This document shows, piece by piece, positions 7,573 through 55,966 of a DNA stretch of 64,000 nt; the first letter of the stretch is position 1, and every line of letters begins with the position of its first letter. A program made the translations under genes and the position numbers. Source of the stretch: Porphyra umbilicalis (Eukaryota > Rhodophyta > Bangiophyceae > Bangiales > Bangiaceae); contig KV919026.1 of the NCBI GenBank assembly GCA_002049455.2, positions 1 through 64,000 on the forward strand, given 5' to 3'. The notes under the pieces were generated by a model. It made no database searches, was not told the DNA's origin, and was given only the letters and a program-made list of their open reading frames with translations.

Positions 7573-7574
7573 TA

Positions 7575-7608
7575 TGGCACTTCCCCCAAAAATGGACACA
7601 CCGCTCAT
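7575..7608 (+). repeat. Left terminal inverted repeat of the giant transposon
   Basis: The 34-bp terminus begins TGGCACTTCCCCCAAAAATG and continues GACACACCGCTCATC. It pairs with the right terminus with two mismatches. The preceding dinucleotide TA (7573-7574) is the target-site duplication. Confidence 0.88.
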
Positions 7609-12627: not shown

Positions 12628-15600
12628 ATGGCGGCGCGCGTCCGCCGCTACACCGTCACAGGCCACACGTGCGGCCGCTGCGTCGGGCGCTTCTCGGCCG
12701 CCGTCGGCGCCATGCCCGGCGTTGCCGCCGTCGACGTGGCCCTCGCGTCGGGCGCCATGGCCGTCATCTACGCGTACCCGCCCGTCGCGACGGCGCCGAC
12801 CGCGGCGGCGGCGGTGGCGGCGGCGGTGGCGGGCGTCTGCAAGGCCGCAACGCCGGTGGCGGCGGCCGCCGCCGCAGCCACCAACGACGCGGCGTCGTGC
12901 ACGGCGTTTACGGTGGCGGGCATGACGTGCGGGCGTTGCGTGGCGGTCGTGCGCGACGCGGTCGCTGCCGTGGACGGCGTGGCGGCCATCGCCGTCGACC
13001 TCCCGTCGGCGACCATGGTCGTCATGTGGGCGCCGGCGGCGGCGGCGTTGTCGTCGCCACCGCCGCGCGTCGTTGCGGGTTGCGCGCGGTATCGGGCATC
13101 GGCAAGACGGCGACGACGGCGGAGACGGTGGCGGCGGCGGCGGCTGCGGCGCCGCCGCCCGTCGGCGCGTCGGCGCGCTCTGTGAAACGCGGCCGCCGCG
13201 CGGCCGGTGCGCCGCGTCAAGCGCCGCCGCGTGCGCCGCTTCAACTGTGGGTGCGGTGCGGCCACGCGTGCTGCTTGTCAGACAGGGTGTTGCCGACGGA
13301 CGTCGGGGTGGTTGTCACGCAGCGCCTCGTCGAGGCGCCGCCCTCGTCGCTACCTGCGTCGGCAAGACCGAGTCGACGCTGACCGCCCTCCCGGGCGCGT
13401 CTTCCGCGCGCTTCAATCTCCTCGCCGGCCGCGCGGCGGTGACGGTCACCGACGCGGGCCTCCTCGAACGAACGGCGCTGGCCGCCGCGCTCGACCGCGT
13501 CGGCTACACCGCCACCGTGACGGCGCGCGGCGACGCGGCGGCGGGGCGCGGCGCCGCCGACGTGGCGAAGTTGCGGATTGCCACTCCCGCCGCCGCCGCC
13601 GAGGTGGTGGGGCTGCTCCGCCGCATGGACGGGGTGGCTGCCGCACAGGCGCTTGTGGGGGGGGTGCCGGCCGACGAAGATGGAGGTGCGGGCGGCGAGC
13701 AGACGGGCGGCTCCGGCCGCTGTTGCGGTTTCTTCTGCCGCCGCTGCTGCCGCCAACGCGCGCCGTGACGTACACTCTTCAAGGTTGTGGCGGCACGGCT
13801 ACCGCTGCACCCGCCTCGGCCGACAGGGCGCGCTGCAGACGCAGTTGCCGCCACGGCTGTCGACGCGCGACGTGGCGGTGGCGGCGGCACGCGCAGTGGC
13901 AACAAAGAACAAGCGGAAGCGGACAGCAGGTCTGCTCGGCCGCGCCGTCGCATGCGGCCTCGTCCGCCCCCGCCCTCCCCTCCACCGCCCCTCTCCCTCA
14001 CCACCCCCCATGTCCCCCCAACACCGCTGCCCCTCCGATTGCGGGGGGAGGGGCCGCCTGGGGGGGGGGGGGGGGGGCTCGCCGCGCTCGCCGCGTCGGA
14101 CGCGGACTCGTCAGAGGAGGAGGGCGGCGGCGGGGCGGGCGCGGCGGCTGCGCCGCGCGTGGGCGGCGGCGGCGACGGCGGCGGCTACGGAGGCGTCGGC
14201 GGTGGCCCGCTGTCGGCAGCGGCTGTGCCCGGCCGCAGCAGCAAAATCGGTGCGGTGAGGGCGTTTGAGGTGGCCACTCGCGGTCGCCTCCCGCTTACTG
14301 TGACGAGCGCTGCGGCGGTCACGGCGGGCGCTGCAGGCTGTGACGTGCAAACGTCCCTGCACGCCGCCGGCCGACACTACCTCGCGATTTGCCGTTTTCC
14401 GTCGGTCTTCACGGTCCCCCTTTTGGTAGTGACCATGGTCGTGCGCCGCGTGCCCGCCGCGGCGGCGGTGCTCGACGCGTCGCTCGCGGCTTCGCGACGC
14501 GGGCTGCTCATGGACGTGACCGCGTGGGCGCTCGCCACCCCCGTCCAGGCTGTGGCCGGCGCCGGCTTTTACCGCGGCGCGTGGTACACCCTTCGCCGCC
14601 GCCGCGCGTCGATGGACGTGCTCACTGCGCTCGGCACGTCGGTGGCGTACGTCTTTTCTGCCACGGTCGTTGCGCTCAACGCGACGCGGCCGGTGGGGGC
14701 GTGGTTGGTGGAAGGGACAGTGTTTGAGACGGCCGCCCTGCTGCTCATGATTGTGCTGACGATTGTGGTCTTTGGCAAGTGGCTCGAGCCCCTCGCCAAG
14801 GGGCGCACCGCCGCGGTGGTGTCGGCGCTCGCCGCGCTCGCCCCGTCGACGGGGACGGTGCCGGCGCCGGGCGGCCGCGCCGTCGCTGCCGACGGGGTGC
14901 CCATTGGGCTCTCGTCGCCGGGGGATGTGGTGTGGGTGCGGCCGGGCGCGAGCTTTCCCGTCGACGGGATGGTGCCCGGCGCCGGCGCGGCCGACGGTGA
15001 GGCGCACTGCAGCGGCGGTGGCGCCAGCGGTCGCGCGCCGACGCCAGCGGCCACCCCGCTGTCGGTCGACGAGTCGATGCTCACGGGGGAGGCGCGGCCG
15101 GCCGCGAAGACCCCCGGCGACGAGGTTTATGTGGGATACCTTAACGCGGCGGCCGCCCTGGCGGTCGTCCGCATCACGGCTGCGGGCGAGGACGGCGTCC
15201 TTCGCGGCATCATGGCCCTCGTCAAAGAGGCGCAGACGGCGCGCGCGCCGATTGAGGCGGTTGCCGACCGCGTCATCGAGGTGTTTGTGCCTGCCGTCGT
15301 TGCGTATGCGGGCGCCACGTTTGCCGTGTGGTACGGCCTGGCCGCCAGCGGGGCCTTCCCCTCCTCGCGGACGGCGGCCGAGGGGGACGTGCTCTTTGCG
15401 CTCCTCTTTGCGCTTGCCGTGATTTTCATTGCGTGTCTGTCTGCGCTCGGCCACGCAACGCCGTCGGTGGTGATGGTCGCGACTGCCGTTGACGCGTCGC
15501 GGAACGGCATCCTTTTCAAGGGGGGGGGGGAGGCGCTGCAGGCGGTGGGGTGGCTCGGCGTCGTCCCCTTTGGCAAGACGGGCACGTTGACCGAGGGCAA

Positions 15601-16360
15601 GCCCCGCGTCACAGGTGCCGTCCGCTTGGACGGCGTCGCCGCCGACGGCGCGCGCGGTCCTGCCGACGTGGCGCTGTCAGACGCCACGTGGTCCGCCCTC
15701 GCCGCCGCCGAAGCCGTGTCGGGGCGCCTGCTCGCGCGCGCGCTCGTCGCGCAAGTGCGTGAGGGTGTCGGCGTGGCGGCCGACGGGGCGGGCGTCGTCG
15801 ATTCTGGGGCCGCCTCCGGCCGGGAGATCGTCACCACCCTCACCGACGGCCGCGTCGCTGCCGTCGGCTGCCGCTCGTGGATGGCCGACCGCTCGCCGAC
15901 GTGGGCGCCCTCGCCGGCGACGGCCGCCGACCTGACTGCGTGGGCGGTCCGCGGCGCGATGGTCGTCCTCATCTCCATTGACGGCACGCAGACGGCGGCG
16001 GTGGCGATTTAAGACACTCTCCGTCCGGACGAGGCGGCCGTCGTCGCGCACCTCACGCGGTCGGGCATGGCCGTGTGGGTCGTGGCGGGCGCGTTGCCGT
16101 GGGCAAAGACGGTCGCTGTCCCCGCCGCGCGCGACGCGCTGCCGCCCGCGTCCCGCTACCGCCGTGTTGCGTTTGTCGGCGACGGAATCAATGAAGCGGT
16201 AGCGCTCGCCGCCGCGGACGTTGGCGTGGCGATGGGCGCCGTCTCGGCGTCGGCGACGGAGAGTGCAGGCGTGGTGCTCGTGCGCTCGGCGCTCGCCGAC
16301 GTGGCTGAGGCGGCGGATATGGCGGCGGTCGCGTCCCAGCAGCAGCAGCACGAACAGTAG
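12628..16360 (+). pseudogene. Degenerate heavy-metal P1B-type ATPase (copper ATPase-like)
   Basis: Two metal-binding (HMA) domains with GHTCGRC and GMTCGRC start at about 12655 and 12910. After a frame change, a third HMA-like domain with CGKTES follows at about 13350. The membrane and pump body runs from about 14270 with the actuator motif LTGEARP. Membrane transport by the family needs a CPC-type motif and a phosphorylated Asp in DKTGT. Here these read CLSALGHATP (15433) and FGKTGTLTEG (15569), so the second Cys and the Asp are gone. The SEHP motif is absent and the hinge is GDGINE (16178) instead of GDGIND. In-frame stops occur at 13766 and 16010. The last helices are missing where a CAG microsatellite begins. 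Proteins of this family export Cu or similar ions; this copy cannot pump. It lies within the giant transposon. Confidence 0.85.
13717..14035 (+). repeat. Copy 1 of a 319-bp inverted duplication (partner at 37.6-37.9 kb)
   Basis: This segment, between the third HMA-like domain and the membrane part of the ATPase relic, recurs in inverted orientation at 37593-37910 with high identity (shared landmark ccgctgttgc at one end and tgttggggggacatgg, read on the other strand, at the other end). Both copies lie inside the giant transposon, 24 kb apart. An 18-base G tract follows at 14060-14077. Confidence 0.75.
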
Positions 16361-17940: not shown

Positions 17941-17981
17941 AGCGTGTGCTCCGAGCAATATGGGTACTTGGTCTTGTCGTT

Positions 17982-29844: not shown

Positions 29845-31935
29845 TCAGCCGACTCGTTCGGCAGCTGCCGCGCGCGCGTCCGACGCCGCCACTCCGGCAG
29901 CTGCAGCAACAACAGCCTCCGCTGGGTCTGGTCCGTTGTCGGTCCCCACCGAAGTGCCATTAGGCACACCCAAGCGCGACCGGTCCGTCAGCACGCCGAT
30001 GGCTTGTGCTGCTGCATCAACATCCAAGAGCCCGTGAGTGTACATGACCTCAACATGCGCTACGGCTTGAGCCAGCAACCCTGTTTCGAGGATGGTCCTG
30101 CGTCGAGCCACGCAAAAGCCGCCGAGCAGGAAAGCCGCCCCTCTGTCTCTCCACGGTGGGGCCGCGTCCACGTACCCAGACCAAAGAGCCATAAACTACA
30201 CATCATGCGACGGCAGCTCGAGGGCCTTCAGGCGCGCCGCGTCCATCGAGTGCAGCCAATCCTCGTCGACGCCGTCTTCGAAGTCAGAAGACAGCTCGGC
30301 GTTCGGCGACTGCTTGACGGACAGAGGGGCGAGGCTGCCTGTGTGAAAGTACTCGCGGTCAGCGCTTGCAGTCGCCAGAGTGCGACGCGCAACCCTTGCT
30401 TTGCCCGACCGCGGCAACAGCCGCTGCCGTCGGCGCGACGCGCCCGCTGCGAGCGGGTGACGTAAAAAGGACAAGTCCCGACGGAGGAAGGCGGCTGCAG
30501 CCGTCGCCGGGCCGGCCCCACCGCCCTCTCGGAGGACCCCGGCGGAGCGCACTACGCCGTGATCGTCGCGCAGCGGTTGAAAGGGGGCGCGGCCGTCGGG
30601 GTGAACGGTGCCGGGGGCAGCGGCCGCTACGGGTGGAAGGCGAAAGGAGGGACGCACAGCCCCAGCCGTCGATTGGAACCAACCGGCCGACTCAAAAAGG
30701 CCTGGCAATGGCATTGGCGTCGACTCCCAGCGAATATTTGCCAGGTAGCGATCCCAGTCGCGGCCCGCACCACTGCTGGCTGCGGCTGCGGCCCCTTCCA
30801 GCTCCGCGGCCGATACGGCACGGAAGAGCTCGACGCTGACGACGGCGTGGAGGGCGCGGAGGTGATCCAGCAGGCCACCGACAGTCCGCGCGTCGAGATG
30901 ACACAGCGGACAGCGGGCGTCCTGCCGTGTGTGTCGGCGGAAGGGCTGCGTTTTTCGACCTGGGCGGTACTCCAGGTACTCAACGTCAAAGGGAGTTGGT
31001 GCTGACCGGTCGAAGACTGCAGGGGTCTGCCGTCCGCCAACCAACTCCTCCCCATCAGCATCCACGCGTGGCACAGCGGGCACGCCGCCACCGCCGGAAG
31101 AAGGAAGAGAGAAGAGCTTGGCTGCAGGAGACGCCGTACACGGCTCGCGCGGGGCCGTCTTTGGACCTTGCGAGGCGGAATGATCCGCCACGACGAGCGC
31201 TTTTGCGGCCGCCGCCATCTCGGCCGCTGCCGCCGCCACCGCCGGGACTGCAGCCAAATGCGCAGGGCAGCCGAGGAACACGGAGTACGTAGACAAGACG
31301 TCGAACGGGGACAAGCCACCCACCCAGGACACGTGCCGCTGCCACCCATCCAGTGCGTCGCCGAGCGCAACGGTGCCGCCACCGCGAGCGCATAAGCCGA
31401 CCCACTTGCCGTCCTTGTGCAGCACGTGCTCAACACCGAAGGCGGGCTCCGCACGACGGCCATCGCCGGTGCGGTGCGCGATCCGCAGAAGAAGACGGGG
31501 GTGGGCCGCCAAAGGGTCCGGCGCCGCAGAGCGCCTCCTTCTACTAGCGAGGCCGGCCGCCGCGGTAGCGGCCGACTGGCGCTCCTCATGGTGCAGTACC
31601 GCGGCAACGCCAGGCCGTAGGTCAATCGACACTGCTTGACTGACAAGCGTCGGTACGACGGAGATCAGCGTCTGCAGGGGCCCCATCGAGCGGGAGTCTC
31701 GCACCCTAGCGTCACGTAGAACTCGCAGCCCTGACCGGCGGCAGATCCTCCGCCCACGGCAGACGACGTGTCCCGTGTCCTCGAGCGGCTGCTACGCCCC
31801 GTACGTGACGTGCGCTCATCCTCATCAGGATCACGCCCGGCAAGTACAGTGACGTCGAGAGCCAAAACAAGCGGTTGAGCACCGGGGGGAGTGGGAGACG
31901 GGTGGCGACGGACAAAGCCGGGAGTTAAGCGGGTC
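29845..31935 (-). pseudogene. SUZ12/EMF2 homologue (PRC2 scaffold subunit), with an in-frame stop
   Basis: SUZ12-family proteins hold PRC2 together and are needed for H3K27 methylation in the nucleus. The main frame runs from 31704. A C2H2 finger (CPLCHLDARTVGGLLDHLRA then LH; C-x2-C-x12-H-x4-H) lies at residues 265-286 and matches the SUZ12 finger in spacing. A VEFS box follows: REYFHTGSLAPLSVK, an acidic DFEDGVDEDWL, then MALWSGYV and VMYTHGLLD. The last two correspond to the MHMWNSFV and NHGLLDA segments of plant EMF2. One in-frame TAG (30196-30198) falls in the linker of the VEFS box. The frame continues to 29845. A probable N-terminal segment with PLVLALDVTVLAG lies in another frame up to about 31935. 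It is on the same strand as the E(z) homologue, 7 kb away, inside the giant transposon. Confidence 0.8.
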
Positions 31936-33020
31936 TCAAATGGTAGAGGCGGCAGGGAGGCGGGCCCTGTAGTGGAGGCTGACATGGAGAAAGAAGCGCG
32001 CCGACGAAAATTCTCTCCCAGCGCGGTACTAACGCACTTACAGACTCGCAGAGACACAGAGGACAAGACCGACCCGGAGCAAAGAGGAAGGGACGGAAAT
32101 GCTTCTTCAGTGCCCGACATACAATCAAGGCAGACCGACAAACAATCAAGGCGGACCCGCCGTGCTGAACAGTTCCTCGGCCGCCGCCCCGGCGGCCTCC
32201 GCGGCCGAATCCCGGCCTCTGCCAGCGAGCCGCCGCCGCCACCGCCGCGCGTCTCATGGGCGCAGACCACCGAAACGAGCGGTCGTTGTCAGGGCTCGCT
32301 CAAGCCAAAGCTGTGCGCGCGGTGGCCAAAGCAAAAGACCTCCAGAGGAGGAAAAAGCTTCTGTAACTTCGTTTCAAAGTCTTGCCAAACTTAATGCCTG
32401 GCAAGTTCCTCGACAAACGAGTGGACAACGTCCTGTTGTGAAGTCAACAAATGCAGTCAGCGTACGTTCCCTAAGACACTGCGAGGGACTTACGAGTGAT
32501 CTTAGACCTTCGGTGGGGTGACCGCCACGCTTGTCCCTCGTCAGCCATATCTCAGATGCGTCTCTGCGGGTCAGCCGTCATCTTTTGGCGCATCTGATGC
32601 GACCTACGGTGTCCTCCGATTTGACTTGTGCTCTGCACCGGCTGGTGCATTGCGACGGGCCAATGCTCGGCGACCGACCGGAGGGTGCTTTGATACTAGC
32701 GGGTTCTCGTGGACCGGGGGGTGCTCTGCCAGCGGAAGTTCCTGGCCGACGCGCTGCTCTTTGAGGACCCGTTTTGTGCTCCACCGCCGCCGGCGCCGGC
32801 GCGCCTAACAGACCTGCCGTCTGCATCCACCCACTCGGTGCCCAACGGTGGCTGCGTCCCGGCCACTGTCTGCTTGTTGTCTGCCCACTGTACCCCTCGT
32901 ACGTGCCGACCACGGATATCTCTCGGACTGCCGGCTGTTTTGCACGGCACGCAGTGTGCCGACTGCCGGCATTTCCCGGTCGGTCGGCCGCTCTTGGACC
33001 GTTGGCGCTTGACGCTGTCC
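31936..33020. other. Stretch without a recognised gene
   Basis: This segment upstream of the SUZ12 homologue could hold its promoter and 5' end. Short frames exist on both strands but none shows a domain. The word gacaaacaatcaaggcgga has a near copy 20 bp upstream (about 32125-32155). Confidence 0.3.
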
Positions 33021-34345
33021 GGCTGTGCTGCCGACGTCGCCCGCCGCCGCCGGCGTCCGGCGACGCCGGCTGCGCCGCCGACATTTCCCGCCGCCCGCGA
33101 CGCCCATTGCTACCGGGTACGTAGCTGACGTTCCTGTCTGCAGCCGTCGCTGCCGTCGCCGCTGCCGGCGGCACCAAGCGCCGACGGCTGCGCCGCCGAC
33201 GTGTCTGCCTTCGGCCGCCACCGGCACCGGCTGCCCCGGCCGGTTGCACTGCCGTCGCCGTCATTGCCCGCTGCGGCCAGTGTCCAGCGCCGCCGGCTGC
33301 GCCGCCGACGTTGCCCGCCTTCGCCGCTGACCGGCGTCACCGTTGCGGCTGTCGCGGTCGTCGCCGCCGCCGGCCACCCCGGCCGGATGCGCCGCCGTTG
33401 CCGCTGTCGCGCCCTTGGCGGCCGCCGCTGGCGACCGGCGCCGCCGGCTGCGCCGCCGACGTCGCCCGCAGCCGCCGGCGGCTGGCGCCGCCGGCTGCAC
33501 CGCCGAGGTTGCCCGCCGCTGCCGCCGCTTGGCGCCGCCGCCTGTGCCGCCGACGTGGTCACTTTCGGCCGACGTCGCGGCCGTCGCCACCGCCGGCCAC
33601 GCCGGCCGGTTGAACAGCCGTTGCCGCCGTCGCCGTCGTTGCAAGCCCCCGCCGCCGACCGGCGCTTGCGGCTGAGCCCACATTTTTGCCGGCTGCCGTC
33701 GACGCGGCCGTTGCCGCCGCCGGCCACAGCGGCCGGTTGCGCCGCCGTTCCTCCCCTTTGCCGGCTGCCGCCCTCGCGGCCGTCGCCGCCGCCGGCCACG
33801 CCGGCCGGTTGCGACGTCGTCGCCGCCGTCGTCGCCGTTGCCGGCAGCCGCCGGCGTCCGGCGACGCCGGCTGTGCAGTAGACATTTCTGCCTGCCACCG
33901 TTGCTGCCGTCGCCGCCGCCTGCCACCCCGGCCGGTTACGCCGCCCTCGCCGCCGTCGCCGCCTTTGGCGGCCGCCGCCGCCGACCGGCTCCGCCGGCCG
34001 CACCGCGGACGTCGCCCGCCGCCGCCGGCCTCTGGCGCCGCCAGCTGCGCCGCCGTCGTCGCGTTTTTTTTGCCGGCTGCCGCCGTCGCGGCCGTCGCCG
34101 CCGCCGGCCACCCAGGCCGATTGCGCCGCTGTCGCCTGCTTTGCCCGCCGCCGCCGGCGCCCGCCGCCGCCGGCTGCGTCGCCGACTTCGCGGACTGCCA
34201 CCGGCGCCGCCGGCGCCGCCGCCGACCACCCCGGCCTGTTTCGCCACCGTCGACGCCTTTGCGTTGCTGGCTGCCGCCGGCGACGCCATTGCCCGCCGCC
34301 GCTTCCTCGGGCGCCGCCGGTTGCGCAGTGGCCGCCGTTTGTCGT
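33021..34345. repeat. GC-rich minisatellite upstream of the transposase
   Basis: Irregular tandem units built from ccgccgccggccaccccggc, gttgccgccgtcgccg and ccggcgccgccggctgcgcc repeat many times. They give open frames of several hundred codons on both strands (Arg/Ala- or Gly/Arg-rich). It immediately precedes the transposase gene, and the array may have invaded its 5' flank. Confidence 0.75.
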
Positions 34346-34349
34346 CGGA

Positions 34350-35409
34350 ACCTGCTCGCTCTGCCTCGAGTAAGACGTACTCTGAGCGTTTGCGCGCCTC
34401 GGCTCTCTCCATGCCGTCCAACGGTGTGGAGCGCAGCAAGGTGCGCAGCAGCATTGGCGTCTCGCGCACCCAGCTGAGGCGCTGGGAGCAATACTACGCG
34501 GACAGCGGGTCGATGTGGTGCAACGCGGACCGGCGGGACAAGCACCACGACGCCTGCGAGTACGACCGGCAGCTGAGGGACGGGCTTATCTACCTCATGC
34601 GGAACCATCCTCATGCGTTGCTCCGCGAGCACGCCGAGATGCTCAAGATAATGAGTCAGGACCCGGCGGGGGACATGACTTTGGTGCGTTTTTCTAACAG
34701 CACGGTCGACCGCCACCTTCGCCGTCTTGGATTCAGACGTTAACAGATTTTGCGGCTGTTTCGTGAGTCGACGGAGGAGCGCCGGCGTCAGCACGCCATC
34801 GTGTGGCATCGCATCCCCCGTCGCTGCATCGTCTCCGACGATGAGACGCACACGGATGGGTCCGACGTGTTTCGTCTCTACGGCCGGTCGCTGACGCACG
34901 AGCGCTCGCACCTCCGTGACCGTGACCCGCGGTCCGTCCCTCGCACAAGCACAACGATGGCGGTATCCAGCCAAGGCCGCATCCTCGGCTTTATGTCTCT
35001 GGTCGTGCGGGAGAAGGCGTTGACGGGGGCGTACTGGCGACTTTTTCTTCAACATCTCTTCCCCAAGCTCGGCGTGTACACGTCGGGGGCGCCATGGGAT
35101 TTACAGCCCGACAACTGCGTCGTGATGTTTGACAACGCCCCTATCCATGACGCCGATGGAGACGCTTTCATGACGGCCAACGGTGTTGCGTTCCTCCGCC
35201 TTCCTCCATACAGCCCCGACATGCAGCCGATTGAAGGCGTTTTCAACGATTTCAAGGTGATCATCCGAAATTTTGTCTACCACAATCAAGCACTGGTGGA
35301 TGACCCCCACCTGCTGCAGGCGATGGCGGCCAGTTTCTTGAGCCAGCGCCACATTGTCGGGCAATTTGACCGCGTAGATCGGGTTTTGGCCGCAGTTCGT
35401 GCCCACTAA
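34350..35409 (+). pseudogene. Tc1/mariner (IS630)-superfamily DDE transposase with one in-frame stop
   Basis: The N-terminus holds a helix-turn-helix region (RSSIGVSRTQLRRWEQYYAD) and a second helical part ending VDRHLRRLGFRR. The catalytic DDE_3-type domain follows with IVSDDETHTDG, then VMFDNAPIHDADGD, then YSPDMQPIEGVF. The three acidic residues are D, D and E, with 33 residues between the second D and the E. The length of about 350 residues is normal for the family. A TAA at 34741-34743 interrupts the frame between the DNA-binding and catalytic parts; otherwise the frame is continuous to 35409. No good in-frame ATG is visible before 34411, so the exact start is uncertain. The enzyme class matches the TA duplication and TIRs of the surrounding giant transposon, which it probably mobilised. 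Confidence 0.88.
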
Positions 35410-38400
35410 ACCTTTGCCTTTTATTCTCACCTTGCTGTCTCTGACCGCACAAGCTTGACAAGCCCGTCACGGCGGAGCATCACAGTGCCTTCCGGAGCAC
35501 CGGCGGATGCTGCGGCCGTGGCCAGCGGAGGCGGCTTCTGCGGCGGCGGTCTCGGCGGCGGCGCATCGGCGGCGGCGCATCGCGCTGAACCTGTATTTCC
35601 TGCCACCACTGCGTTCGACGTGGGCCGCACATGCTGCGGCGGTGGGGATGTCGCCGTGTCAGCCGTGTCCGGGAAGGTCGCGCCTGCTGCACATGGGCTG
35701 GAGAGGCGTGGCGGCGGCCATGGTCGCCTGCGCCCCGTCGCCGGCGGCGGCAGCGGCGGCCATGGCCACGTGCTCCCCGTCACCGGTGGCCGCCACAGCC
35801 ACCGCCGCCGCCACCGTGACCGTCGCTGCCACAACCGCTGCATTCGGCCGCCGCCAGCGCCGCTGCCACGGTGGCCCTCGCCGCCTTTGTGGTCGCCGTT
35901 TGCGTCAGCACCGCCCCGGGCGGGAGCGGAACACGGCGCGACGCCGGAAGCCCGGGCCCCGCCGTGGCTGTCGAGACAGACCACGATTTCGCCGCCGTTT
36001 GCACCATCGCCGTCTGCGCCGACGCAGCCGCGGCCGCCGCCGCCTCGTCCGTCTGCCGTCTGCGCCGACGCAGCCGCGGCCGCTGCCGCCTCGGCCGACG
36101 CCACCGTCGCCACAACAGCAGACGGCCGCGGCCACTTGGAGCACTCGCTGGCCCCCGCAGGTGGGACGACGAACGGGGGGGGGTGCGCGAGGGGTTGCGC
36201 GGAAGGGGGCGGGGGGGGGGAGGCGTACTTCCTGAGGACAACACGAGCCGCAACGTGGACAAACACATCGGCAGACGCGGGCGTGGACGAGCCCGTCGGT
36301 GACGGCGGCGGCACAAGTGGCAGTGATGCCTCGCACGGCGGCGGCGGCGGCTGTTGAGGGGCCCGCCGCCGTCGGCCGCGGCAGATGCGGCGTCGCGGGA
36401 GTTGCCGCCGCCGCCGCCGCCGCCGCTGCCGCCGCGGCCGCCACCGACGCCACGGAGGCCTTGGCCGCCCGTGGCTGCCCGAGCGAGAGCGGCGCCATCC
36501 TCGTTGCTGCGGATTGGGCACGGCCGAGCGGAACCTGTGCCGGGGTATGGGGGGGAGGGCGAGGGCGCGGGGCGCAGAGCTGCCAACGCGCCTGTCAGGG
36601 CGTTCCAGGCCGGCGCGCAAATTGGGGCGACGGGATGCACAGGACGGCCGCCGCGTGCGCGGTCGCGATCAGCAGCGGCGCGCATCGTGGGGCGCCGTTG
36701 GCGGCCCGGCGCCCGCCGTCACAACCGCCGCCGCCGTCTGCGCTGCCGCGTCTGCGCTGCCGCGACTGCGGCCGACGCCGCCGGCACTCGCGGTGCAGGC
36801 GCCGTCCCAGGAGGGAGGCCCAGAGCGTGGCGCGCCAGCGGCATGCCCGTCGCCATCGTCCCAACCGACACGGCGGTCGTCGCCGCCGCCGTTGCCGTGG
36901 CACGCATCGCCCCCGCCCTTGGCGCGGCCGCAAGCGCCACCGCCGTCACTGGGAGGCCCGCACCGTGGCGCTCCGCTGCCGACCACGCGGCCGACGCGGC
37001 AACGGCCACGGCCGTCGCCGCCGCCCCTGCATGCAAATCACCACGGTAGCCGGCACCACCGCCGGCACCGCCGCGTGCGCCGCCTACCTGTGCGCCGCCG
37101 CCGCGTGCGCCGCCGCCGCGTGCGCCGCCGCCGCGCGCGAGACGGGGAGCGCCGCGGGCGGCTACGCGGCCGCCGTCGCAGCCGCGTCCGTGCTCGCCGC
37201 CGCTATCGTCAGCGGTGCCGCCAGGTCCATCAATGTCGCCGCCGACGCAGCGGCGTGCGTCGCCACGGCTGTCGAGGTACGTACGTTGTGACGCGGTGCC
37301 ACAGGCCCGGCGGTCGGTGTTCCGACCGCTACAGTAGCCGCCACCGCCGCCTGTGGCACTGTCGCGAACGCCGCCACAAAAGACGTCGGCGCCGTGAGCG
37401 CCGCCGCCGCCACCTTGGGGGAAGCAACGTGGCGTGCAACCGCAGTCCAGGCCGCAGCCTCCGAAGCGGCTCCCGCCGCCGCGGCGCCTTCCCGTGGCGG
37501 CCCTTTCCCGTGGCGGCGCCTCCGCCGGCGCTGTGTACCCAGCGTCCGCCGCCACCACCGCTGCCGCCGCTCCCAGCAGTCAGCGAATATGGATGGGCGG
37601 CGGTGTTGGGGGGACATGGGGGGTGGTGAGGGAGAGGGGCGGTGGAGGGGAGGGCGGGGGCGGACGAGGCCGCATGCGACGGCGCGGCCGAGCAGACCTG
37701 CTGTCCGCTTTCGCTTGTTCTTTGTTGCCACTGCGCGTGCCGCCGCCATCGCCACGACGCGCGTCGACAGCCGTGGCAGCAACAGCGTCTGCAGCGCGGC
37801 CTGTCAGCCGAGGCGGGCGCAGCGGTAGCCGTGCCGCCACAACCTTGAAGAGTGTACGTGACGGCGCGCGTTGGCGACAGCAGCGGCGGCGGAAGCAACC
37901 GCAACAGCGGCGGTAGCTGCCGCGTGGAACTGGTGCCACCGACGGTAGCAGCATTTGCGGAGGCCGCAAAATGGCGGCTGGCGGCGCCGCCGCCCCTGGC
38001 GCAGTCCGGCTGCCGTCGCCGCTGTCGCCGCGGCCGCCGCCACCGTCGCCGCCACCGTCGCCGCCAGCTTTTATTGCACCGACCACCGACACGCCCTCAG
38101 AAGGCACCGCCGACGTGGCGACCGCTTCACTAATCGTGCTCGCCTCTGACTCGCCGTGGGTGGCGTCGGCACCAGGACGCCGTGCATTCGGGCTCCCGCC
38201 GCCACCGCTCGCGGCGAAGATGTTGCTGGCTGAGGAGGCGCCTACTGAGGCCGGTGGCGGCGGCGGCGGCTGCAGCAGGAGCTGCCGCGCAGGTGGCCTC
38301 CGGTCCGGAAGAGGCGTGGCGGTGTCAGAGGTGCTGCTCGATGCGCTGTCGCAAGTGATGTGCGGCGTGGCCCCCGCCGGCAGGCCATCGCATGGGATCC

Positions 38401-38640
38401 AGGGCGGGTGGAGGGGGTGCAAGCGCGAGCACAAAGGGCCGGTCTGAAGGCAGGGAGCTGCAGCACACAACGTGCTCCGGGGGAACGTGCGTGCATGAAT
38501 AAAAGGACACCTCTGGAACAAGAAACAAGGGATGTTGGTTCTTCAAGAACGGGACGAAGCGAGCAATCGGCCAAACCGTGACACTCTTTTGACCTGCACC
38601 CGTACAGGCACTCCGGCGAGAAATGCCCCTCTCCCTCTTC
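35410..38640. other. GC-rich, mostly Ala/Pro/Arg-coding region without a recognised gene
   Basis: The region lies between the transposase and the 3' end of the E(z) homologue. Frames of 200-400 codons are open on both strands and give low-complexity peptides. A minus-strand frame at 37580-38521 has a less repetitive first half (HPLHPPWIPCDGLPAGATPH) but no recognised domain. The second copy of a 319-bp inverted duplication lies at 37593-37910. Confidence 0.35.
37593..37910 (-). repeat. Copy 2 of the 319-bp inverted duplication (partner at 13.7-14.0 kb)
   Basis: Read on the minus strand, this segment matches 13717-14035, which is part of the ATPase relic. Identity is high over the whole length, with only scattered differences. 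The flanks do not match, so a fragment rather than a whole gene was copied. Confidence 0.75.
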
Positions 38641-38646
38641 TAGCTG

Positions 38647-41505
38647 TCACTTCACCCACGAGTCAAGAGCATAGCCATAGTCAAAAAAGACCTCCTCTCC
38701 GGGGCTCAGATCCCTCGCAGCAAAGAGAGCGGCGCGAATTGTACCGTCGATGCTCAGCAGCTTCATGTGCAGGTTGGGCGAGTCGGAGCTGTGGTTGATG
38801 AACTTCGTCCGGCTTCCAACTCGGGTGGCGTCGACGATGGTTGTTTGTGACAGAGTGGCGAGGTAGCTTACCCCCCGCGCGTCGTACGCTCGACCGCGAC
38901 GGTGCCCCTCCGCGGTAGAGACAAGCTCTCCCACATATTCACGAACAAAATCTCCGGCTGCAGCTGGTTCGGCCACAAAGACGCCAAGCCCGTGGGCACG
39001 AGATGCGCCCAGAACGAGGCGCACCCGGGCACCAACTTGAACTTGAACGTTGCGACAGCGCCTAGTACCTGCCGACGTCGGACTGCGCGAAGACATAGCG
39101 ACGCCAAGCCCAGACATGACACCGGGGTCGGTTGGGCGTGGTGACCGCACCAGTCGCCAATAGGCCCCAGCTGCGTCCGCAGTGGAGCGGGTGATGGGAG
39201 AATCTGCCATCACGGATCCCGTAGTCAGCCCGTCCACGCCTGATGCCGGATGCAGGTGGGCACCGCACATCATGCACGCGTCAGTATCACACTCACGGTC
39301 CATGGCAAAACAAGGGCACGAATCCGTCTCACAGCGCGACGGCGAGGTGCAGGAGCACGATGTGCGCCTGCTGCTAAACAGCGACCCATCCGTCGGTGCG
39401 CAGCCGTCGGCGGGGATAAATACGGACGCCGAAGTGCCAGCATCCAACACCACAGGCACGCGCGACGCCCAACGGGTACGAGCACACCCACACTGCTTCT
39501 CACACGACACGTCACTTTGCACGCATCGACAATTGTGCCGCGTGCACGCGCCAAGATGGCCACACGGAACGAAGGGCGCGGACTTCTTGAAGATCGCGTT
39601 TTCGCTGCCGTTCGTGAGGGAGAACTCGGGGGGGGTAGAAAGAGGAGCGTCCCGTTGGGGTGGTCGCGGTGTCGTCGGCTGCACCGGCCAGGCTCTTGGC
39701 CAACCCCAGTCCACCAGGTACTCAGCCACCCGGCGACATGTCCAGGAGGGCACGAAACGGGCCATGCGGCACGTATCGAACCGTCCGACAATACGAACAG
39801 CCACATGAAGCAGCTCAACGTCTTCGACGGCCCAGACGTCCGTGCGGCACCCGCGCGCGAACACCTCCGCGCGGCTGCGGAGGTCGAGCCGGCAGTCACG
39901 ACACGGTCCGGCCACCACGCGATTCGCCGCATGCATGGCGCGGGCGCGTCGCGCGCGACCGCCGTCTGCCCCGCCGTCTGACGCCGTGCCTGGGGCATCA
40001 ATGCCAGCGCCATCTGACGCCGTCTCCATGCGTCGCGGGTCAGAAGGACGCGCTACGGGCGTGGAAGGGAACGGCGCGACGAGCCCGTTACGCACAGGAG
40101 CCCCGTGAATGCGACAGCAGTACACAAAGCAGAAACGACAGAATAAGCGCACAAGCGTCTCCTGGGTACGGAGCGACGAGTCGAGCGGCCGCGGGAGTGC
40201 GGCCACGCCGACCAACGAATTAGCAGCCACGCCGCGGCGCGGCAAAGGGCGGCAGCCCAGTAGATTGCCGAAGAGTGAGGAGACGGAGGGGACGGCGTCG
40301 CCGCCCGCCGCACGAACAGCCGCTCTTACAGCGCGGGCAACGGCGACGCCTTCACGCAGAGAGCCTGAGAGCCCACGGACAACAACAAGTTCCGACGTGC
40401 GCCTACCGACGCCGAACGCACGCGGCCCCGTCAACCCGTCCACGTCCGACGAGGACTGCGGGGACTCCGCCAATGTACCCGCCGCTCAAACCGCGGCGAG
40501 GCAGGCCCCACCCGTTAGTCGTCGAAATGCAGAGTGTCGAGCAGCGGCGTCCGTTCGCGCAACGTGAACTGCACCAGCCGCGGCCGGTCGGGCGTTCGCC
40601 AGATCTAGCATCAGTTTGATAGCCGACCGGCGCACGCGGAGAACACGCCGTACAACGCGGAGAACGACAGCATCCGCACGCAGCGCCGCGACAACAGTGG
40701 CAAGAGCTTCTCGGTCCATGGCTCTGCGTGTACGGGCAGCAAGAGAGTAGTACGCCGTACATTCCGTTCTCCCTGCGTCCCCGTACGCGCAGCTACCGTC
40801 ATGGCTCGCCGCTGACGCGTACTTGTTCTCGTCAATGATGCGCGCCATCGCCCCCTTCGCACGGGGAGAATCCCGTCAGTAAGGGACAACGAAGCCCGGA
40901 GAAGGTGCTTCCAGGCGCCGCCACGACCGGCGGACAGACACGTACGATGTCATCCGTGGTGGCGGTCGCACGGTGGGTAGCACCGTCGGCCGAATGGCCG
41001 TACGCTCCGTCGCATCGACAGATGATTCGATGGGCGGTCGATTCGCCACTGCTGCGACAGCAGGAGCGGCGCCTGCGCCCGTTTCGTGCGACCTGGGCGG
41101 CCAAGCTGGATTCGTCAGGCGTGGTTTCTTGGAAAAAGGAGGCTTATGCGACACAGCACGACAGGAATTCGTGACGGTGATGCCTTCGAGGGATTCGGTG
41201 CACTCGAGGGCCGGAGGATCCGGCCCGCCGCAAGCCTGCAGATGCAGGTCGCGCTGTAGACTGCGCATGGCCTCTCGGTTCGCACTCATAACAGCTGCTG
41301 CAGCAGACCGTCGACGGCGACGCGCGAGCCGAAGCGTCCTGCGGATGATGCGCGGGACGACGCGCGCTACCGCGCGTCGGTCACCGGCGCGTGCCTGCGC
41401 CGTGTCCAGGGCTTCTTCCACGGCGTCAACACTCGACGCGCCGCCATCAGAGGATGAGCCGCCGGCGAGGTTGGGGGGCGGCCGGGGAGCGGCTTCGTCG
41501 TCCAT
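38647..41505 (-). pseudogene. Enhancer of zeste homologue (H3K27 methyltransferase, PRC2), with two in-frame TGA codons
   Basis: E(z)/EZH proteins transfer methyl groups to lysine 27 of histone H3. One frame runs from 41505 to 38647, broken only by TGA at 40876 and 40486. The first two parts (about 210 and 120 residues) show the N-terminal E(z) pattern, including AAVMSANREAMRSLQRDL and IIDENKY. The last 608 residues hold an MCSS-like LFCRFCFVYCCRIH (111-124), a SANT domain (AVEDVELLHVAVRIVGRFDT, about 215-253), a CXC region (PCGHLGACTRHNCRC through CFAMDRECDTDACMMC, 303-403) and a SET domain (about 487-605) with REYVGEL, FINHSSDSPN and PGEEVFFDYGY. The SET motifs needed for cofactor binding look conserved. 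The second TGA could lie in a 36-nt GT...AG segment, but no such explanation serves the first. The gene lies near the right end of the giant transposon. Confidence 0.88.
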
Positions 41506-42860: not shown

Positions 42861-43386
42861 CACCTGGGCAGCGACACAGTCGTTCGCTGCACACCTGGGC
42901 GCGGCTGCCGAGGTCAGCGGCGTCCCTGTCGGTGGCAGCGGTCCGCGTTGGCGATGGTGACACAGCCGAAGTTGATGGCGCCGCGGCCGGTGGCAGCGGC
43001 CGACGGTGGGATACATTTGAGCCGGGGCGTCGGCAGTGATCTATGCCGTGCTCTATTGCGGCAGAGCCGCACCTCCCGCGGAGAAAACGGAGACGGGGCA
43101 ATCTCGCTGTTTGTGCCCACAAACGATTGCATGGTGGCGGACGCAGAAACACGCCCAAATTAGAGTTGATTCCGATGCACGCCGGCGTTGAAGAGAAAAT
43201 CTCCCCAGATAGAGAGCTGCTTCCTTGCATGAGAAGCCCAACGGCAGCGAATAAGGAAAAGGACGGGAGTGTCGACCTTTGGTCTTGAGCTTGCAACAGA
43301 TTTTACCGGGGCACGAACGCCGCTCAACAATTGGACATGCATCGATGGCTCCCCCTTTTAGCACGATGTCTGCAAGATGCTTCCTG
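42861..43386. other. Right subterminal region of the giant transposon
   Basis: No gene was recognised. One GCACGATG motif lies at 43361-43368, 19 bp inside the right TIR, matching the motif cluster near the left end. Confidence 0.45.
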
Positions 43387-43420
43387 ATCAGCGGCGTGTC
43401 CATTTTTGGGGGAAGTGCCA
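43387..43420 (-). repeat. Right terminal inverted repeat of the giant transposon
   Basis: Read on the minus strand it begins TGGCACTTCCCCCAAAAATG and continues GACACGCCGCTGATC, matching the left terminus at 32 of 34 positions. TA at 43421-43422 is the second copy of the target duplication. Confidence 0.88.
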
Positions 43421-43422
43421 TA

Positions 43423-46434: not shown

Positions 46435-46439
46435 CCCCT

Positions 46440-46937
46440 TGTAGCGGTTCTTGGCACCACCACGTTGGTTCGTCGTCTGGCCGAAGTGACCTCTTGATCA
46501 GCTCGGTCCGTCGAAGGAACTGCCCCGGAAAACAACCCACAGTCCAGCCTTCCCCCTCGTGCGGGGAGAGGATCACGGCAAAGCCCAGGGGGGTATCGTC
46601 GTCCAAAGCACAATTGGTTTTATCAAACGGCGACGGGGACGGCGTCCCCGCTGGCAATAAACCCCTCCCAAACCGAACGCCGGCGGCCAAAGTAGCCACC
46701 CCAAATGCGCCAAACAGATAAATCCCTCCAAAGCGAAATGTTCAAACAAGTAGTAGGGGGGCTGGGAAAACCACTTGGGAAAAGCCCCGCCCCAGACCGA
46801 ATCCAATCTCCCCGAGATCTGGACAGGTCATTCCCTTGCTGGCCCGGATCGGGATATTTTGGGGCGGCCCCCCGGGGGTGTGCTGTCCACAGCTGAGGGG
46901 CCACGCCCCTTCCAACTGGGGACCCCCGACCGCCACA
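46440..46937 (-). repeat. 3' LTR of element 3
   Basis: A 498-bp copy of the LTR, about 98% identical to the 5' LTR. It starts TGTAGCGG and ends CCGCCACA on the plus strand. A purine-rich tract (cgaggggg on the minus strand, about 46940-46948) adjoins it on the pol side, as expected for second-strand priming. Confidence 0.92.
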
Positions 46938-47490
46938 CAGCCCCCTCGGTGCGTGACGTGGCGTCTTTGTTCGTCCCGCGACGACCTCCGAGGAGGGGGT
47001 TCCAGCCCGGCCCCCTGGCCGGGTGCCGGCCACAACCGCCACCCCCCCCTCCCGATCCTCGCCCCAGGGGGGTTGTCGAGGTCGGTCCGCGGACGAGATT
47101 GGCCCCACGCGACACCGGCGTGGCGTGGCGTGCGGCCCGCACGGGTTTCCCGCGGCCCCCACACCCCCCGTGACGCACGTCGGCCCCACCCCTCCCCGTG
47201 GGCCCACACGCACATCCCGGTCTCACCCACACAGGCGACTCCACGACTCCTCCACGCCACCCCACGACGTAACCCTCCGCGCTCGTTGCCACGCGGTGTT
47301 CGCCGACTAGTTCCTCCGCCCACCCCACGACGTGCCGTCCACTCCCCCTCCGTGGTGCCCGTCGCTTCTTGCTCCTGTCGGCCCCCGTGGGCCCGCTCCC
47401 TCCTCCTCCGCGGTTGCCCCCACGTCCCCCCCCCTCCCGAGGACCCGGTGACCGCCGCCCCCCCCCTCCGCGTCCGCGTCGTCCACCGCG

Positions 47491-49125
47491 ATGGCCGACG
47501 AGGAGATGGCGTACCGCACCGTCGTGGGCCCCCTGCCCGTGTTGACCGATCCGTCCACGTGGGCACCGGCGTGGGCGCGCGAGGAGGCGCGCCCGGACGT
47601 GGCTGGGACGCTGGCCCACGCGACGTTCCGAGGGATCGACTCGGTACGCCCCGCCAACCCGTTCGTGAAGCAGATCACCGCGATGCCGCACGCCCTCGTG
47701 CCGTCCCTGGACGACCGAGCCTCGTCGATCACCGTGGTGCGGCGTCGCCGCGAGGTGGGCTACCGCCGGTCGTACCTCGGGTTCATGGATGACGCCCCCG
47801 CGGACCCGCCGTTGGTGCCGACCTTCGACTACATCTTGACGCCACCGCCCTACCTCGAGGGGGCCGACTTGGAGGGTCCCACGACGGTCCAGTTGACGAC
47901 GGCCCGCAACCACCGGGGTGGGCTCACCGGCCACCTCGTGGGCTGGCATCAAGCGGAATACTCCAGCTGCGCGTCGTCGTCGCGGTCGCGCTTCTACTTG
48001 CCGACCCCCGCGTGGTGGTCCGGGGTTGAGGTCCCATACGTGTGCATGGCGGAGCTCCCGTGAGTCCACACGTACGCCACGGACGACCTCTACGCGGGGC
48101 GACGCGCCTCGTGGGCCATCTTCCGCAGCGAGTGGGCCCTCGGGGCCGCCGTCGTCCTCCTCGAGACGTTCCGCACCCGTCGGGTCTTGTGGCGCTTCCC
48201 TCCGCGGTTGGTCGACTGGATCCGTTCCTTGGGGCCGGCCAACATCTGCTCCCGTGCCGAGGGCCCCGACGCGGAGGCGACCGCCACCCTCGAGGCGTTG
48301 CTGGACCTCGCGGACCAGCTCCCCGACACGGAGGCGTTCCGTCAGCGCCTCCGTGCCCGCAGCTGCGAACGTCGTGACCGCAAGGGCTGGATCTGGGCCG
48401 ACCTCGAGGTGGGTGACGAGGGGACGCGCGCCAAGGTCGCCGAGGATCTCCGCCCCTTCGACTTGCCATACTCCGCGGACATCCTCGAGGCACCCGGGTA
48501 CGGTTTCGCTCGTGGGGGTTGGTCCGCCGCCGTCTCGGCTGCTCGTAGGCCGCGTTACCCCGGGGGTGGAGCCGCCCCGCCTGGTTCCTCCGTGGTGACC
48601 ACCGCCGTGGGCTCGTCCATCCCGGGTCCCCCGCAGCCTGTCGTGTTGGCGCCCCCCTCCGCGGGCCATTCCTCGGGGAGCCACATGGTCTCGTTCGACC
48701 CCGTGGAGCACCGTGACATCCCCGACGCTACCTTCGACTCGCTGGACCACGTGCCCTCGGACCGCGTCCCGCAGGGGTTGGCGCGTGTTGTCGCTTGCGA
48801 CCCCGGGGAGCTCCGCGGCTACACGACGGGGACCTTGATGGCCGGCTTGTGTCACACCGTGGTGTCCCTTGGCGAGTCGATCGGGCAGTGGGCCCGCGAC
48901 AACCCCGGGGTTCCGCCCCGCCAAGTGGAGGAGCTGCTTCAACTCGTGGGCCGACGTGGCATCCGCGCGGCCCTCCTTCGTGAGACCGGGGTTGCCGCCG
49001 GCGGGGTAAGCCGTCGCCAGCAGCACCAGCATGACCGCGACGCCTACCGCGAGGAGCCGCCCGCGCAACGCTCGCGAGGTCCGTCCGGCCACGGGTGGGG
49101 TGGGCCCTCGTCGGGGCAGCGTTGA
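47491..49125 (+). other. Antisense gene of element 3 between pol and the 3' LTR
   Basis: This plus-strand coding region lies opposite in direction to gag and pol. It starts at ATG 47491 (MADEEMAYRTVVGPLPVLTD). It contains a conserved block (YLPTPAWWSGVEVPYVCMA), a second block (LWRFPPRLVDWIRSLGPANI), an acidic helix-rich part (ATLEALLDLADQLPDTEAF) and a C-terminal block (LGESIGQWARDNPGVPPRQV). The same blocks in the same order occur antisense in element 2, so this is a conserved part of the retroelement lineage and not a chance frame. Antisense genes between pol and the 3' LTR are known in some plant Tat/Ogre-type Ty3/gypsy elements. I saw no known domain. Confidence 0.65.
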
Positions 49126-49566
49126 ACAGGGAGAGCGGACCACGGCGGGAGGTAGGAGATCGCCCCACGGGGGCCGTAGTAGTAGTCCATAGTGTAGGGG
49201 GTGTCGTCGCGTCGACGGTGCCGGTCGGCCTGTCAGCGGCCAATAAACCCCACGCGGGTCGTTTGCGTACCACCCACGAGAGCGCCCCCTGCTCCTTCGA
49301 ACCGGATCCCCACGCGATGCCGCATTGAAATTCGCAGCCCCGCCCGTCCACACGGGTCTGCCATCACCTACCGCCCCCTCCGGGCACGTCCACGATGCCA
49401 GATCGACTTGGCCCGACGCCGTGACCATGGGACGGACTGTCGCGCTGCCGCGCGGCGGCGACGGTCGCCACCGCGGCCACGTGGCTCCCAACGAGACACG
49501 TGTCGTGGGCCGAGAATCCGCCACGATTCGAAACTTGAAAACCACGTGTCCCTCGAGGGAAATACC

Positions 49567-50052
49567 TTAGGCAAGAAAGTCGACGACCGCCACCGCTTCT
49601 TCGACTCGTAGGCCCACCCGCCGCATATACTGGTGCACCTTACGTTTGTCGAACCGACTGGCCAACTCGAGGGTGTCCTCCTCGGGGTGGTACCCCCACC
49701 AGCGGGTCCACAGGCGTAGCGTGCCGTCCTCCGCGACTTCGTGGCCCACGAAGACCTCCCAGACGAACTCGTTGCCCGTGTGTTGATGCCCCTCGGGGAC
49801 CACGATATCTTGGGGCACCCCGAGGTTCTGCAGGAGCGTCTGCGGATCCCCCGGCGGGCCCGGCGCCGCCGTCACGTGGTCGCTGCTTACCGTCTCAGGG
49901 TACTCGCCGATGTCCAGCGAGAACGTGCCCTCCCCGCGGGACAACACCTTGTACGGTCCGGCCGCGCGGGTCCCGAGCTTGTGCTTGGTCCGCGCGTGAC
50001 CATCGACGAATACCCAGTCCCCCGCTTGGATGTCCTTGTTGACCGGCCTCAC
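49567..50052 (-). other. Chromodomain segment of element 3
   Basis: The segment continues the integrase tail (AGDWVFVDGHARTKHKLG) and carries a chromodomain-like part with LWTRWWGYHPEEDTLELAS. Chromodomains in this lineage steer integration to particular chromatin. It lies immediately downstream of the main pol region. Confidence 0.75.
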
Positions 50053-50061
50053 GCGGGCGTC

Positions 50062-53577: not shown

Positions 53578-53643
53578 ACGACGGGGGGCAACCGGGGAGT
53601 TGGGGCGGACAGGGGGGATTGAGGGGATGGCGAGGCCACCCCC

Positions 53644-55431: not shown

Positions 55432-55440
55432 CGGCCGGAA

Positions 55441-55458
55441 TCCCCTGCTGCTCCACCA
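55441..55458 (-). promoter_or_regulatory. Primer-binding site of element 3
   Basis: Five bases inside the 5' LTR the minus strand reads TGGTGGAGCAGCAGGGGA. This is complementary to a tRNA 3' end of the form TCCCCTGCTGCTCCACCA, including the CCA tail. The tRNA species was not identified. Confidence 0.7.
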
Positions 55459-55463
55459 GAAAT

Positions 55464-55961: not shown

Positions 55962-55966
55962 CCCCT

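What the first reader, a model, noticed from the sequence alone, without database searches (positions are those of the whole stretch)
29845..41505. Two PRC2 core subunits (E(z) and SUZ12) carried as cargo
An E(z) homologue with MCSS, SANT, CXC and SET parts and a SUZ12 homologue with the diagnostic C2H2 finger and VEFS box lie on the same strand, 7 kb apart, inside one mobile element. Together they form most of the minimal H3K27 methyltransferase (an ESC/EED WD40 subunit was not seen). A transposon bringing its own Polycomb machinery could silence itself, shield itself, or interfere with host PRC2. I know of no described element that does this.
Basis: partly seen in the sequence, partly recalled or inferred. 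Interest (0 to 1): 0.95.

Follow-up and report, generated by a model that had tools for sequence, protein, structure and literature searches.

The report
Giant transposons carrying Polycomb PRC2 genes
In what is probably a red seaweed genome, a family of very large jumping-DNA elements carries copies of two core genes of the Polycomb gene-silencing machine, which suggests that the elements use, or interfere with, the very system that normally silences such elements.

Summary
An E(z) gene (41505-38647, minus) and a SUZ12 gene (about 31760-29845, minus) lie in one 35,846-bp DNA transposon (7575-43420) with 25-bp terminal inverted repeats (TIRs), a TA target duplication, an IS630/Tc1/mariner-type transposase, and a clean insertion in a Gypsy integrase gene. 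The genome is probably Porphyra umbilicalis (inferred). The pair recurs: of 78 preSET_CXC matches 62 have a related transposase within 25 kb (uniform random mean 5), and 23 of 26 VEFS-box matches have a CXC within 25 kb (mean 1); nine TIR pairs enclose E(z), SUZ12 and transposase. Between subfamilies dN/dS is 0.17-0.38. SUZ12 accompanies only a minority of E(z) loci; no WD40/EED was found in the element; the window copy is decayed. Most likely, but only inferred, element E(z)+SUZ12 join host EED into a PRC2 serving the element. SET methyltransferases in transposons are known; my searches found no PRC2 pair in print. New variant of a known kind; very high interest.

The parts
7573..7574 (.). 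TA target-site duplication, left copy
   Evidence: TA flanks every end seen (window both, C79 both, C219 both, C174 right)
7575..7599 (+). left terminal inverted repeat, 25 bp identical to the right one
   Evidence: 123 matches with up to 3 mismatches in the genome, 0 for the reversed control pattern
43396..43420 (-). right terminal inverted repeat
   Evidence: homology of copies C79 and C174 to the window stops at 43424/43425
43421..43422 (.). TA target-site duplication, right copy
38647..41505 (-). E(z)/EZH gene (ATG at 41505, stop 38647-38649); matches the 953-aa homologue P0001 over its whole length at 71%; in-frame TGA at 40876-40878 and 40486-40488 in this copy
39259..39357 (-). CXC (preSET_CXC) part of E(z)
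38674..38991 (-). SET domain of E(z), with the motifs HGLGVF, FINHS and FFDYGY
   Evidence: (65.7 bits)
29845..31760 (-). SUZ12 gene; frameshift near the 5' end and TAG at 30196-30198 in this copy; 90% identical to the uninterrupted 642-aa frame of copy C79
30010..30381 (-). VEFS box of SUZ12
   Evidence: 37.5 bits, one stop inside
34372..35409 (+). transposase, IS630/Tc1/mariner type (HTH_23 weak, DDE_3), TAA at 34741-34743 in this copy; uninterrupted in C79 and C219
8223..11115 (+). conserved Cys-rich gene near the left end (8223-9782 and 10735-11115, split by about 950 bp absent from C79 and C219), no Pfam match at E 0.01, 90% identical between C79 and C219
17883..18368 (-). conserved small Cys/His-rich protein, 162 aa, 71% identical to C219, no Pfam match
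12926..16012 (+). heavy-metal P-type ATPase region: E1-E2 ATPase part 13769-16012, a weak HMA match in 12926-13765; a stronger HMA match (3e-20) lies in another frame that was not located. Also in C79; in C174 as far as fetched; absent from C219

Best explanation
Shown: a clade of giant DNA transposons (TIR pairs of about 24-48 kb) that insert at TA and have an IS630/Tc1/mariner-type transposase carries E(z) and, in some subfamilies, SUZ12, as genes kept by selection. Inferred mechanism: the element makes the catalytic subunit (E(z)) and the subunit that activates and targets it (SUZ12, VEFS box). These join the host's EED (and RBBP4/p55) into a PRC2 variant that writes H3K27me3 in the element's interest, most likely on the element's own chromatin. 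That would replace heavier host silencing with a reversible facultative state and could time expression to life-cycle phases. Antagonism of host PRC2 through competition for EED would be a by-product or an alternative.
For: Element anatomy: TIR, TA duplication, integrase frame restored on joining the flanks; transposase DDE_3 40.5 bits. Recurrence: 62 of 78 CXC matches have a transposase within 25 kb (2000 uniform random draws: mean 5.2, max 16), 23 of 26 VEFS matches have a CXC within 25 kb (mean 1.2, max 6); 9 TIR pairs enclose all three genes. Linked E(z) and transposase diverge together (Spearman 0.84, 40 pairs; 0.56 in the 28 distant ones). Selection: SUZ12 dN/dS 0.23-0.38 between subfamilies, E(z) CXC-SET 0.17-0.30, transposase 0.16-0.48. 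Of 15 transposon-type E(z) homologues tested (P0006, which ends inside SET, left out), 15 have an NH motif and 14 a motif of the FFDYGY kind, some with substitutions (FFNYGY, FFHYGY, FFDHGY); the pattern missed P0013, whose sequence reads YFDYGY. EED is missing from the element but EED-like genes exist elsewhere. In the red alga Cyanidioschyzon merolae, E(z) knockout leads to expression of transposons (PMC13353863, passages).
Against: No expression, binding or methylation data. The window copy is damaged, and the nearest relatives C79, C174 and C219 each have at least one lesion in E(z), SUZ12 or transposase; recent E(z) pairs give dN/dS 0.63-0.84 and one recent SUZ12 pair 1.4. SUZ12 is seen at a minority of E(z) loci (23 of 78 CXC matches have a VEFS within 25 kb), so the pair is not obligatory. 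An EED-binding segment was only weakly suggested (14 bits, with a profile that includes one ordinary E(z)). Some E(z) subfamilies have NHR or NHK in place of NHS, and some have changes in the FFDYGY motif, so not all need be active. The random control is uniform, whereas transposons cluster, so the linkage excess is somewhat overstated.
Confidence: 0.5

Rival explanations
1. Anti-silencing decoy: element E(z)/SUZ12 compete for host EED or target sites, poison host PRC2 and so relieve the host's Polycomb silencing of transposons.
For: PRC2 silences transposons in a red alga (PMC13353863, passages). A domesticated transposase, ALP1, inhibits PRC2, and its authors suggest an origin in evading host surveillance (PMC4671723, passages). 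EED was not found in the element, so host EED would have to be recruited.
Against: Catalytic motifs and low dN/dS in the CXC-SET part suggest selection on enzyme activity, which a decoy would not need.
Confidence: 0.25
2. Weapon against rivals or the host: element PRC2 silences competing transposons or host genes rather than the element itself.
For: Many distinct subfamilies coexist in one genome, as expected in competition between elements.
Against: No targeting information; nothing in the sequences points to foreign targets.
Confidence: 0.1
3. Passive passengers: host PRC2 genes captured once and copied along, without benefit to the element.
For: The window and C79 also carry a captured P-type ATPase that C219 lacks, so gene capture or loss happens; several copies are decayed.
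Against: Low dN/dS between subfamilies, persistence in dozens of diverged elements and co-divergence with the transposase are not expected of passengers.
Confidence: 0.1
4. Not cargo: a host multigene family of E(z)/SUZ12 around which transposons happened to insert.
For: 10 of 78 CXC matches have neither a transposase nor a VEFS within 25 kb, and 3 of 26 VEFS matches have no CXC within 25 kb. Of these, C73 lies inside a TIR pair, C278 beside a TIR, and C154 beside a SET fragment.
Against: Homology between copies stops at the TIR; the joined flanks restore an integrase frame; 14 of 31 TIR pairs enclose an E(z).
Confidence: 0.02

Closest known systems
HarbingerS and MuDR transposons of Phytophthora that encode a SET histone methyltransferase (Kojima and Jurka 2014, as cited in PMC12730594, passages)
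   Same: DNA transposons with a SET-domain histone methyltransferase gene as cargo
   Different: Different transposase families; as cited, a SET gene only. I did not see the Repbase reports, so the type of SET protein is unknown to me. Here it is E(z) with CXC, in part of the elements with SUZ12, in IS630/Tc1/mariner-type giant elements.
Fungal DNA transposons with TET/JBP dioxygenase (PMC12730594, passages)
   Same: Transposon-borne enzymes acting on epigenetic marks, thought to counter host silencing
   Different: They act on 5-methylcytosine in DNA; no histone methyltransferase complex subunits
Giant algal Sola1 and EnSpm elements with a ParB-DNA methyltransferase protein or other accessory genes (PMC12477816, section 5 read, other passages)
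   Same: Giant (20-30+ kb) algal DNA transposons with an accessory protein proposed to mark the element's own DNA
   Different: Other transposase superfamilies and a DNA, not histone, methyltransferase
ALP1/ALP2, domesticated Harbinger transposases that join PRC2 (PMC4671723, passages; PMC7282668, search listing only)
   Same: Link between a transposon protein and PRC2, proposed to have begun as evasion of silencing
   Different: A transposase that binds host PRC2, domesticated and immobile; here the element encodes PRC2 core subunits itself
Canonical PRC2 (EZH2-SUZ12-EED-RBBP4)
   Same: E(z) with MCSS, SANT2, CXC and SET; SUZ12 with C2H2 finger and VEFS
   Different: No WD40 subunit found in the window element; genes are mobile and multicopy

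Membership tests
E(z)/EZH (KMT6) proteins | CXC domain before the SET domain | tested here: met
   preSET_CXC 26.6 and SET 61.4 bits, both over cut-off; 78 CXC matches in the genome
E(z)/EZH (KMT6) proteins | EZH2 closer than other SET families, with MCSS and SANT2 in order | tested here: met
   phmmer with the C174 frame: EZH2 3.4e-35, best non-EZH family (KMT2A/MLL) 1.5e-17; the MCSS/SANT2 stretch aligns at 11 bits only, 55 bits with a profile that also holds one ordinary E(z)
E(z)/EZH (KMT6) proteins | EED-binding segment | tested here: inconclusive
   N-terminal stretch up to PYxG aligns to EZH2 at 14 bits
E(z)/EZH (KMT6) proteins | H3K27 methyltransferase activity | not testable with these tools
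   needs an assay
SUZ12 | VEFS box | tested here: met
   38.2 bits in C79 (cut-off 23); 37.5 in the window with a stop inside
SUZ12 | SUZ12 C2H2 zinc finger | tested here: inconclusive
   Zn_SUZ12 23.9 bits, under the cut-off of 28; aligns to the SUZ12 finger of solved structures at 8 bits
IS630/Tc1/mariner superfamily | DDE_3-type transposase | tested here: met
   40.5 bits, cut-off 28.6; HTH_23 19.3, under its cut-off of 24.6
IS630/Tc1/mariner superfamily | terminal inverted repeats and TA target duplication | tested here: met
Starship giant transposons (fungi) | tyrosine-recombinase captain, no TIR (recalled) | tested here: not met
   TIRs present; no such domain among the Pfam hits of the frames scanned
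HarbingerS/MuDR with SET, KDZ, EnSpm, Sola | own transposase type | tested here: not met
   only a DDE_3 transposase was found among the element's frames scanned
Complete PRC2 unit | WD40 subunit (EED) encoded alongside | tested here: not met
   no WD40 among 97 frames of at least 150 aa; EED-like places at C527 and C20, the latter about 10.7 kb beyond a TIR end

The most novel reading that the evidence does not exclude
A selfish Polycomb system: transposons that encode their own PRC2 catalytic and activating subunits, borrow host EED, and use H3K27me3 to govern their own chromatin or to subvert host silencing, diversified into many subfamilies in a lineage where PRC2 is a transposon silencer.
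Probability: 0.5. Interest if true: 0.97.

Novelty: new variant of a known kind. Interest (0 to 1): 0.92.

Why it matters
It has been proposed that the Polycomb system began as a transposon silencer (PMC10638273, passages), and in a red alga PRC2 still represses transposons. Here transposons carry E(z), and in part SUZ12, as selected genes in many families. This makes a long-standing question directly testable: how transposons and Polycomb shaped each other, and whether Polycomb parts can be turned to a transposon's use. It would also supply dozens of natural, fast-evolving E(z)/SUZ12 variants for structure-function work, and it warns that red algal E(z) gene counts and trees can be confounded by transposons.

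Tried and rejected
Viral origin: one scan of IMG/VR with the E(z) part found no relative. Host SET family only: the strongest SET hit (C352, L001) was read and looks like an MLL/SET1-type gene (recognised by eye), not E(z). EED in the element: not found. A SUZ12 structure model was made but is worthless (mean pLDDT 33), so no fold search was run; E(z) modelling was never accepted by the busy machine. Naming the host by 18S failed (no answer). An ordinary E(z) (P0017) as query brought up the transposon-type loci and no clear host gene. A search for the Cys-rich left gene gave no answer. The idea that the 331-bp inverted pair 13706-14036/37591-37921 is the element's TIR was dropped when the true ends were found. 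No host-versus-element tree was built, for want of host E(z) letters. By hand, I merged split pieces: 134 places into 69 E(z) loci and 40 places into 24 SUZ12 loci. The 40 pairs are the 53 linked loci less 13 whose E(z) match covers little more than the SET. The TIR pairing used the 100 places listed of 123, and gene places, which are capped lists.
Full report
Observation. The window holds an E(z) frame at 41505-38647 (minus) with CXC and SET over Pfam's cut-offs, and a SUZ12 frame at about 31760-29845 (minus). Among solved structures EZH2 ranks first for the E(z) frame of the sibling copy C174 (3.4e-35), and SUZ12 is the only molecule matched by the SUZ12 frame of copy C79 (weakly, best E 0.006). 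That C79 SUZ12 is an uninterrupted 642 aa with a VEFS box at 38.2 bits, cut-off 23.

The element. Two close copies, on contigs C79 and C174, align with the window and stop at 43424/43425; C79 reaches the left end at 7573, while the left end of C174 was not fetched. The ends are 25-bp perfect inverted repeats (TGGCACTTCC...), 7575-7599 and 43396-43420, flanked by TA. Joining the flanks with one TA removed restores an uninterrupted Gypsy integrase frame, so this is a clean insertion of 35,846 bp. C219 (34,146 bp) and C79 (37,371 bp) have the same ends with TA on both sides. In C219 the modules are reordered and partly inverted, and the block with the P-type ATPase is missing.

The transposase. 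A frame on the opposite strand between the two Polycomb genes (34372-35409) is 91-95% identical between copies and carries DDE_3 at 40.5 bits, cut-off 28.6, in C219. With the TA duplication this places the element in the IS630/Tc1/mariner superfamily. Members of that superfamily are usually a few kb long (recalled), so the size is unusual.

The genome. Searches ran on the window's own assembly (83.8 Mb, 665 contigs). The name Porphyra umbilicalis is an inference: an ATPase homologue named BU14_0272s0013 [Porphyra umbilicalis] lies on a contig of 158,948 bases, the exact length of contig C174.

Copy number and linkage. The preSET_CXC family gave 78 matches (81 candidates, all scored) and VEFS gave 26 (26 candidates, all scored); not every CXC match has a SET match in the capped list. 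The transposase gave 115 matches, a lower bound (115 scored of 375 candidates). Within 25 kb, 62 of 78 CXC matches have a transposase, 23 of 78 a VEFS, and 23 of 26 VEFS matches a CXC; 2000 uniform random placements gave means of 5.2 (CXC-transposase) and 1.2 (VEFS-CXC) and maxima of 16 and 6. Transposons cluster, so a uniform control is lenient. Ten CXC matches have neither partner; of these C73 lies inside a TIR pair and C278 beside a TIR. Of the three VEFS matches without a CXC, C154 lies beside a SET fragment; C478 and C6 stand alone and are candidate host SUZ12 genes. C76 has CXC and a partial SET with no linked transposase or VEFS, a candidate host E(z). An earlier count with merged loci gave 53 of 69 E(z) loci with a transposase and 22 of 24 SUZ12 loci with E(z).

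TIR pairs. The TIR with up to 3 mismatches occurs 123 times, the reversed control 0 times. From the 100 places listed I paired 31: 14 enclose E(z), 9 enclose E(z), SUZ12 and transposase, and 15 are under 8 kb and hold none of the three as far as the lists go.

Selection. Pairwise Nei-Gojobori dN/dS between subfamilies is 0.23-0.38 for SUZ12 and 0.17-0.30 for E(z) CXC-SET; three transposases give 0.16-0.48. Very recent pairs give higher values (E(z) 0.63-0.84; SUZ12 0.35-0.45, and one pair 1.4 on under 1% divergence). Synonymous sites are near saturation for the widest E(z) pairs (4 of 21 could not be computed), so the ratios are rough. In the window-C219 comparison, differences concentrate in one codon position across most of E(z) and SUZ12. 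E(z) and transposase identities of linked loci correlate (rho 0.84, n = 40; 0.56, n = 28 without the near group); subfamilies are not independent, so this is descriptive.

State of the window copy. E(z) has two in-frame TGA codons, SUZ12 a frameshift and a TAG in the VEFS box, the transposase a TAA. C79, C174 and C219 also have lesions. Copies with single uninterrupted genes exist: SUZ12 frames without stops in C79, C219, C184, C273, C59, C466 and C387, and many E(z) open frames of 900-1400 aa. Long homologues of both proteins occur on other public contigs from ENA and JGI sources.

EED. No WD40 was among the families found in 97 frames of at least 150 aa in the element. A FIE query found two strong places, C527 and C20; the C20 place lies about 10.7 kb beyond a TIR end. 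The element would have to borrow host EED.

Origin. In a 40-residue finger block the unlinked C6 SUZ12 shares 23-25 residues with element SUZ12s, which share 28-36 among themselves; human SUZ12 shares 10-12 of 31 with them. This suits capture from the red algal host, but direction was not tested.

Reading. An element lineage that keeps, under selection, a catalytic subunit with its main motifs and, in part, the VEFS subunit most plausibly builds a working PRC2 with host EED. In Cyanidioschyzon merolae loss of E(z) leads to transposon expression (PMC13353863, passages), and H3K27me3 covers about half of the repeats there (PMC5405695, passages). I favour self-directed H3K27me3 (0.5) over a decoy (0.25); the rest is in the rivals. 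That SUZ12 accompanies only a minority of E(z) loci is a real limit: E(z) is the general cargo and SUZ12 a frequent partner.

Known context. SET methyltransferases in HarbingerS and MuDR elements and TET/JBP in fungal transposons (PMC12730594, passages), ParB-DNA methyltransferase in giant algal transposons (PMC12477816, section 5), and ALP1 (PMC4671723, passages) show that chromatin functions in or from transposons are a known kind. In the passages that I saw of three PRC2 evolution papers, none mentions transposon-borne PRC2 genes (PMC10638273, PMC8788455, PMC9018016). My literature searches (listings only) showed no PRC2 pair in a transposon; the Bostrychia genome paper that is cited for giant EnSpm elements in red algae is not held.

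Noticed in passing
window 12926-16012: A heavy-metal P-type ATPase region rides in the same element in the window and C79 (and in C174 as far as fetched), but not in C219; its named homologues nearest to it are Porphyra umbilicalis proteins, one on a contig of C174's exact length.
   Followed up: partly
window 7573-9782 against C219:28077-30685: The left-end module is 95% identical between window and C219 while most other modules are 65-80% identical, which suggests recent exchange of element ends.
   Followed up: partly
G000, for example C12:122900-126522, C33:333335-336834, C263:68772-72214: 15 of 31 TIR pairs are short (3.2-7.1 kb) and hold no listed E(z), SUZ12 or transposase match: likely non-autonomous derivatives, many close in size to the left module.
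   Followed up: partly
window 7574-7609 and 43386-43421: At both ends an ATG is formed by the A of the target TA plus the first two TIR bases, opening a frame inward (MALPPKMDTPLI); a frame at the right end is 82% conserved with C219 over 125 codons.
   Followed up: no
window 13706-14036 and 37591-37921: A 331-bp inverted duplication (95%) inside the element: one arm overlaps the ATPase frame, the other lies beside E(z); the arm beside E(z) also exists in C79 and C174.
   Followed up: partly
G000:C20:216890-218268 and C527:8898-9863: Two EED/FIE-like loci in one genome; the one on C20 lies near, but outside, the end of an E(z)-bearing element.
   Followed up: partly
window 1-7572 and 43423 onward: The transposon sits in a Gypsy integrase; a separate Gypsy frame at 3-2027 is followed by a weak chromodomain match in 2028-2762.
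   Followed up: no
window 46439-55962: A Gypsy retrotransposon bounded by 500-bp repeats 98% identical, outside the giant element.
   Followed up: no
window 8223-11115 and 17883-18368: Two conserved Cys-rich genes of unknown function in the element, possible DNA-binding or targeting factors.
   Followed up: partly
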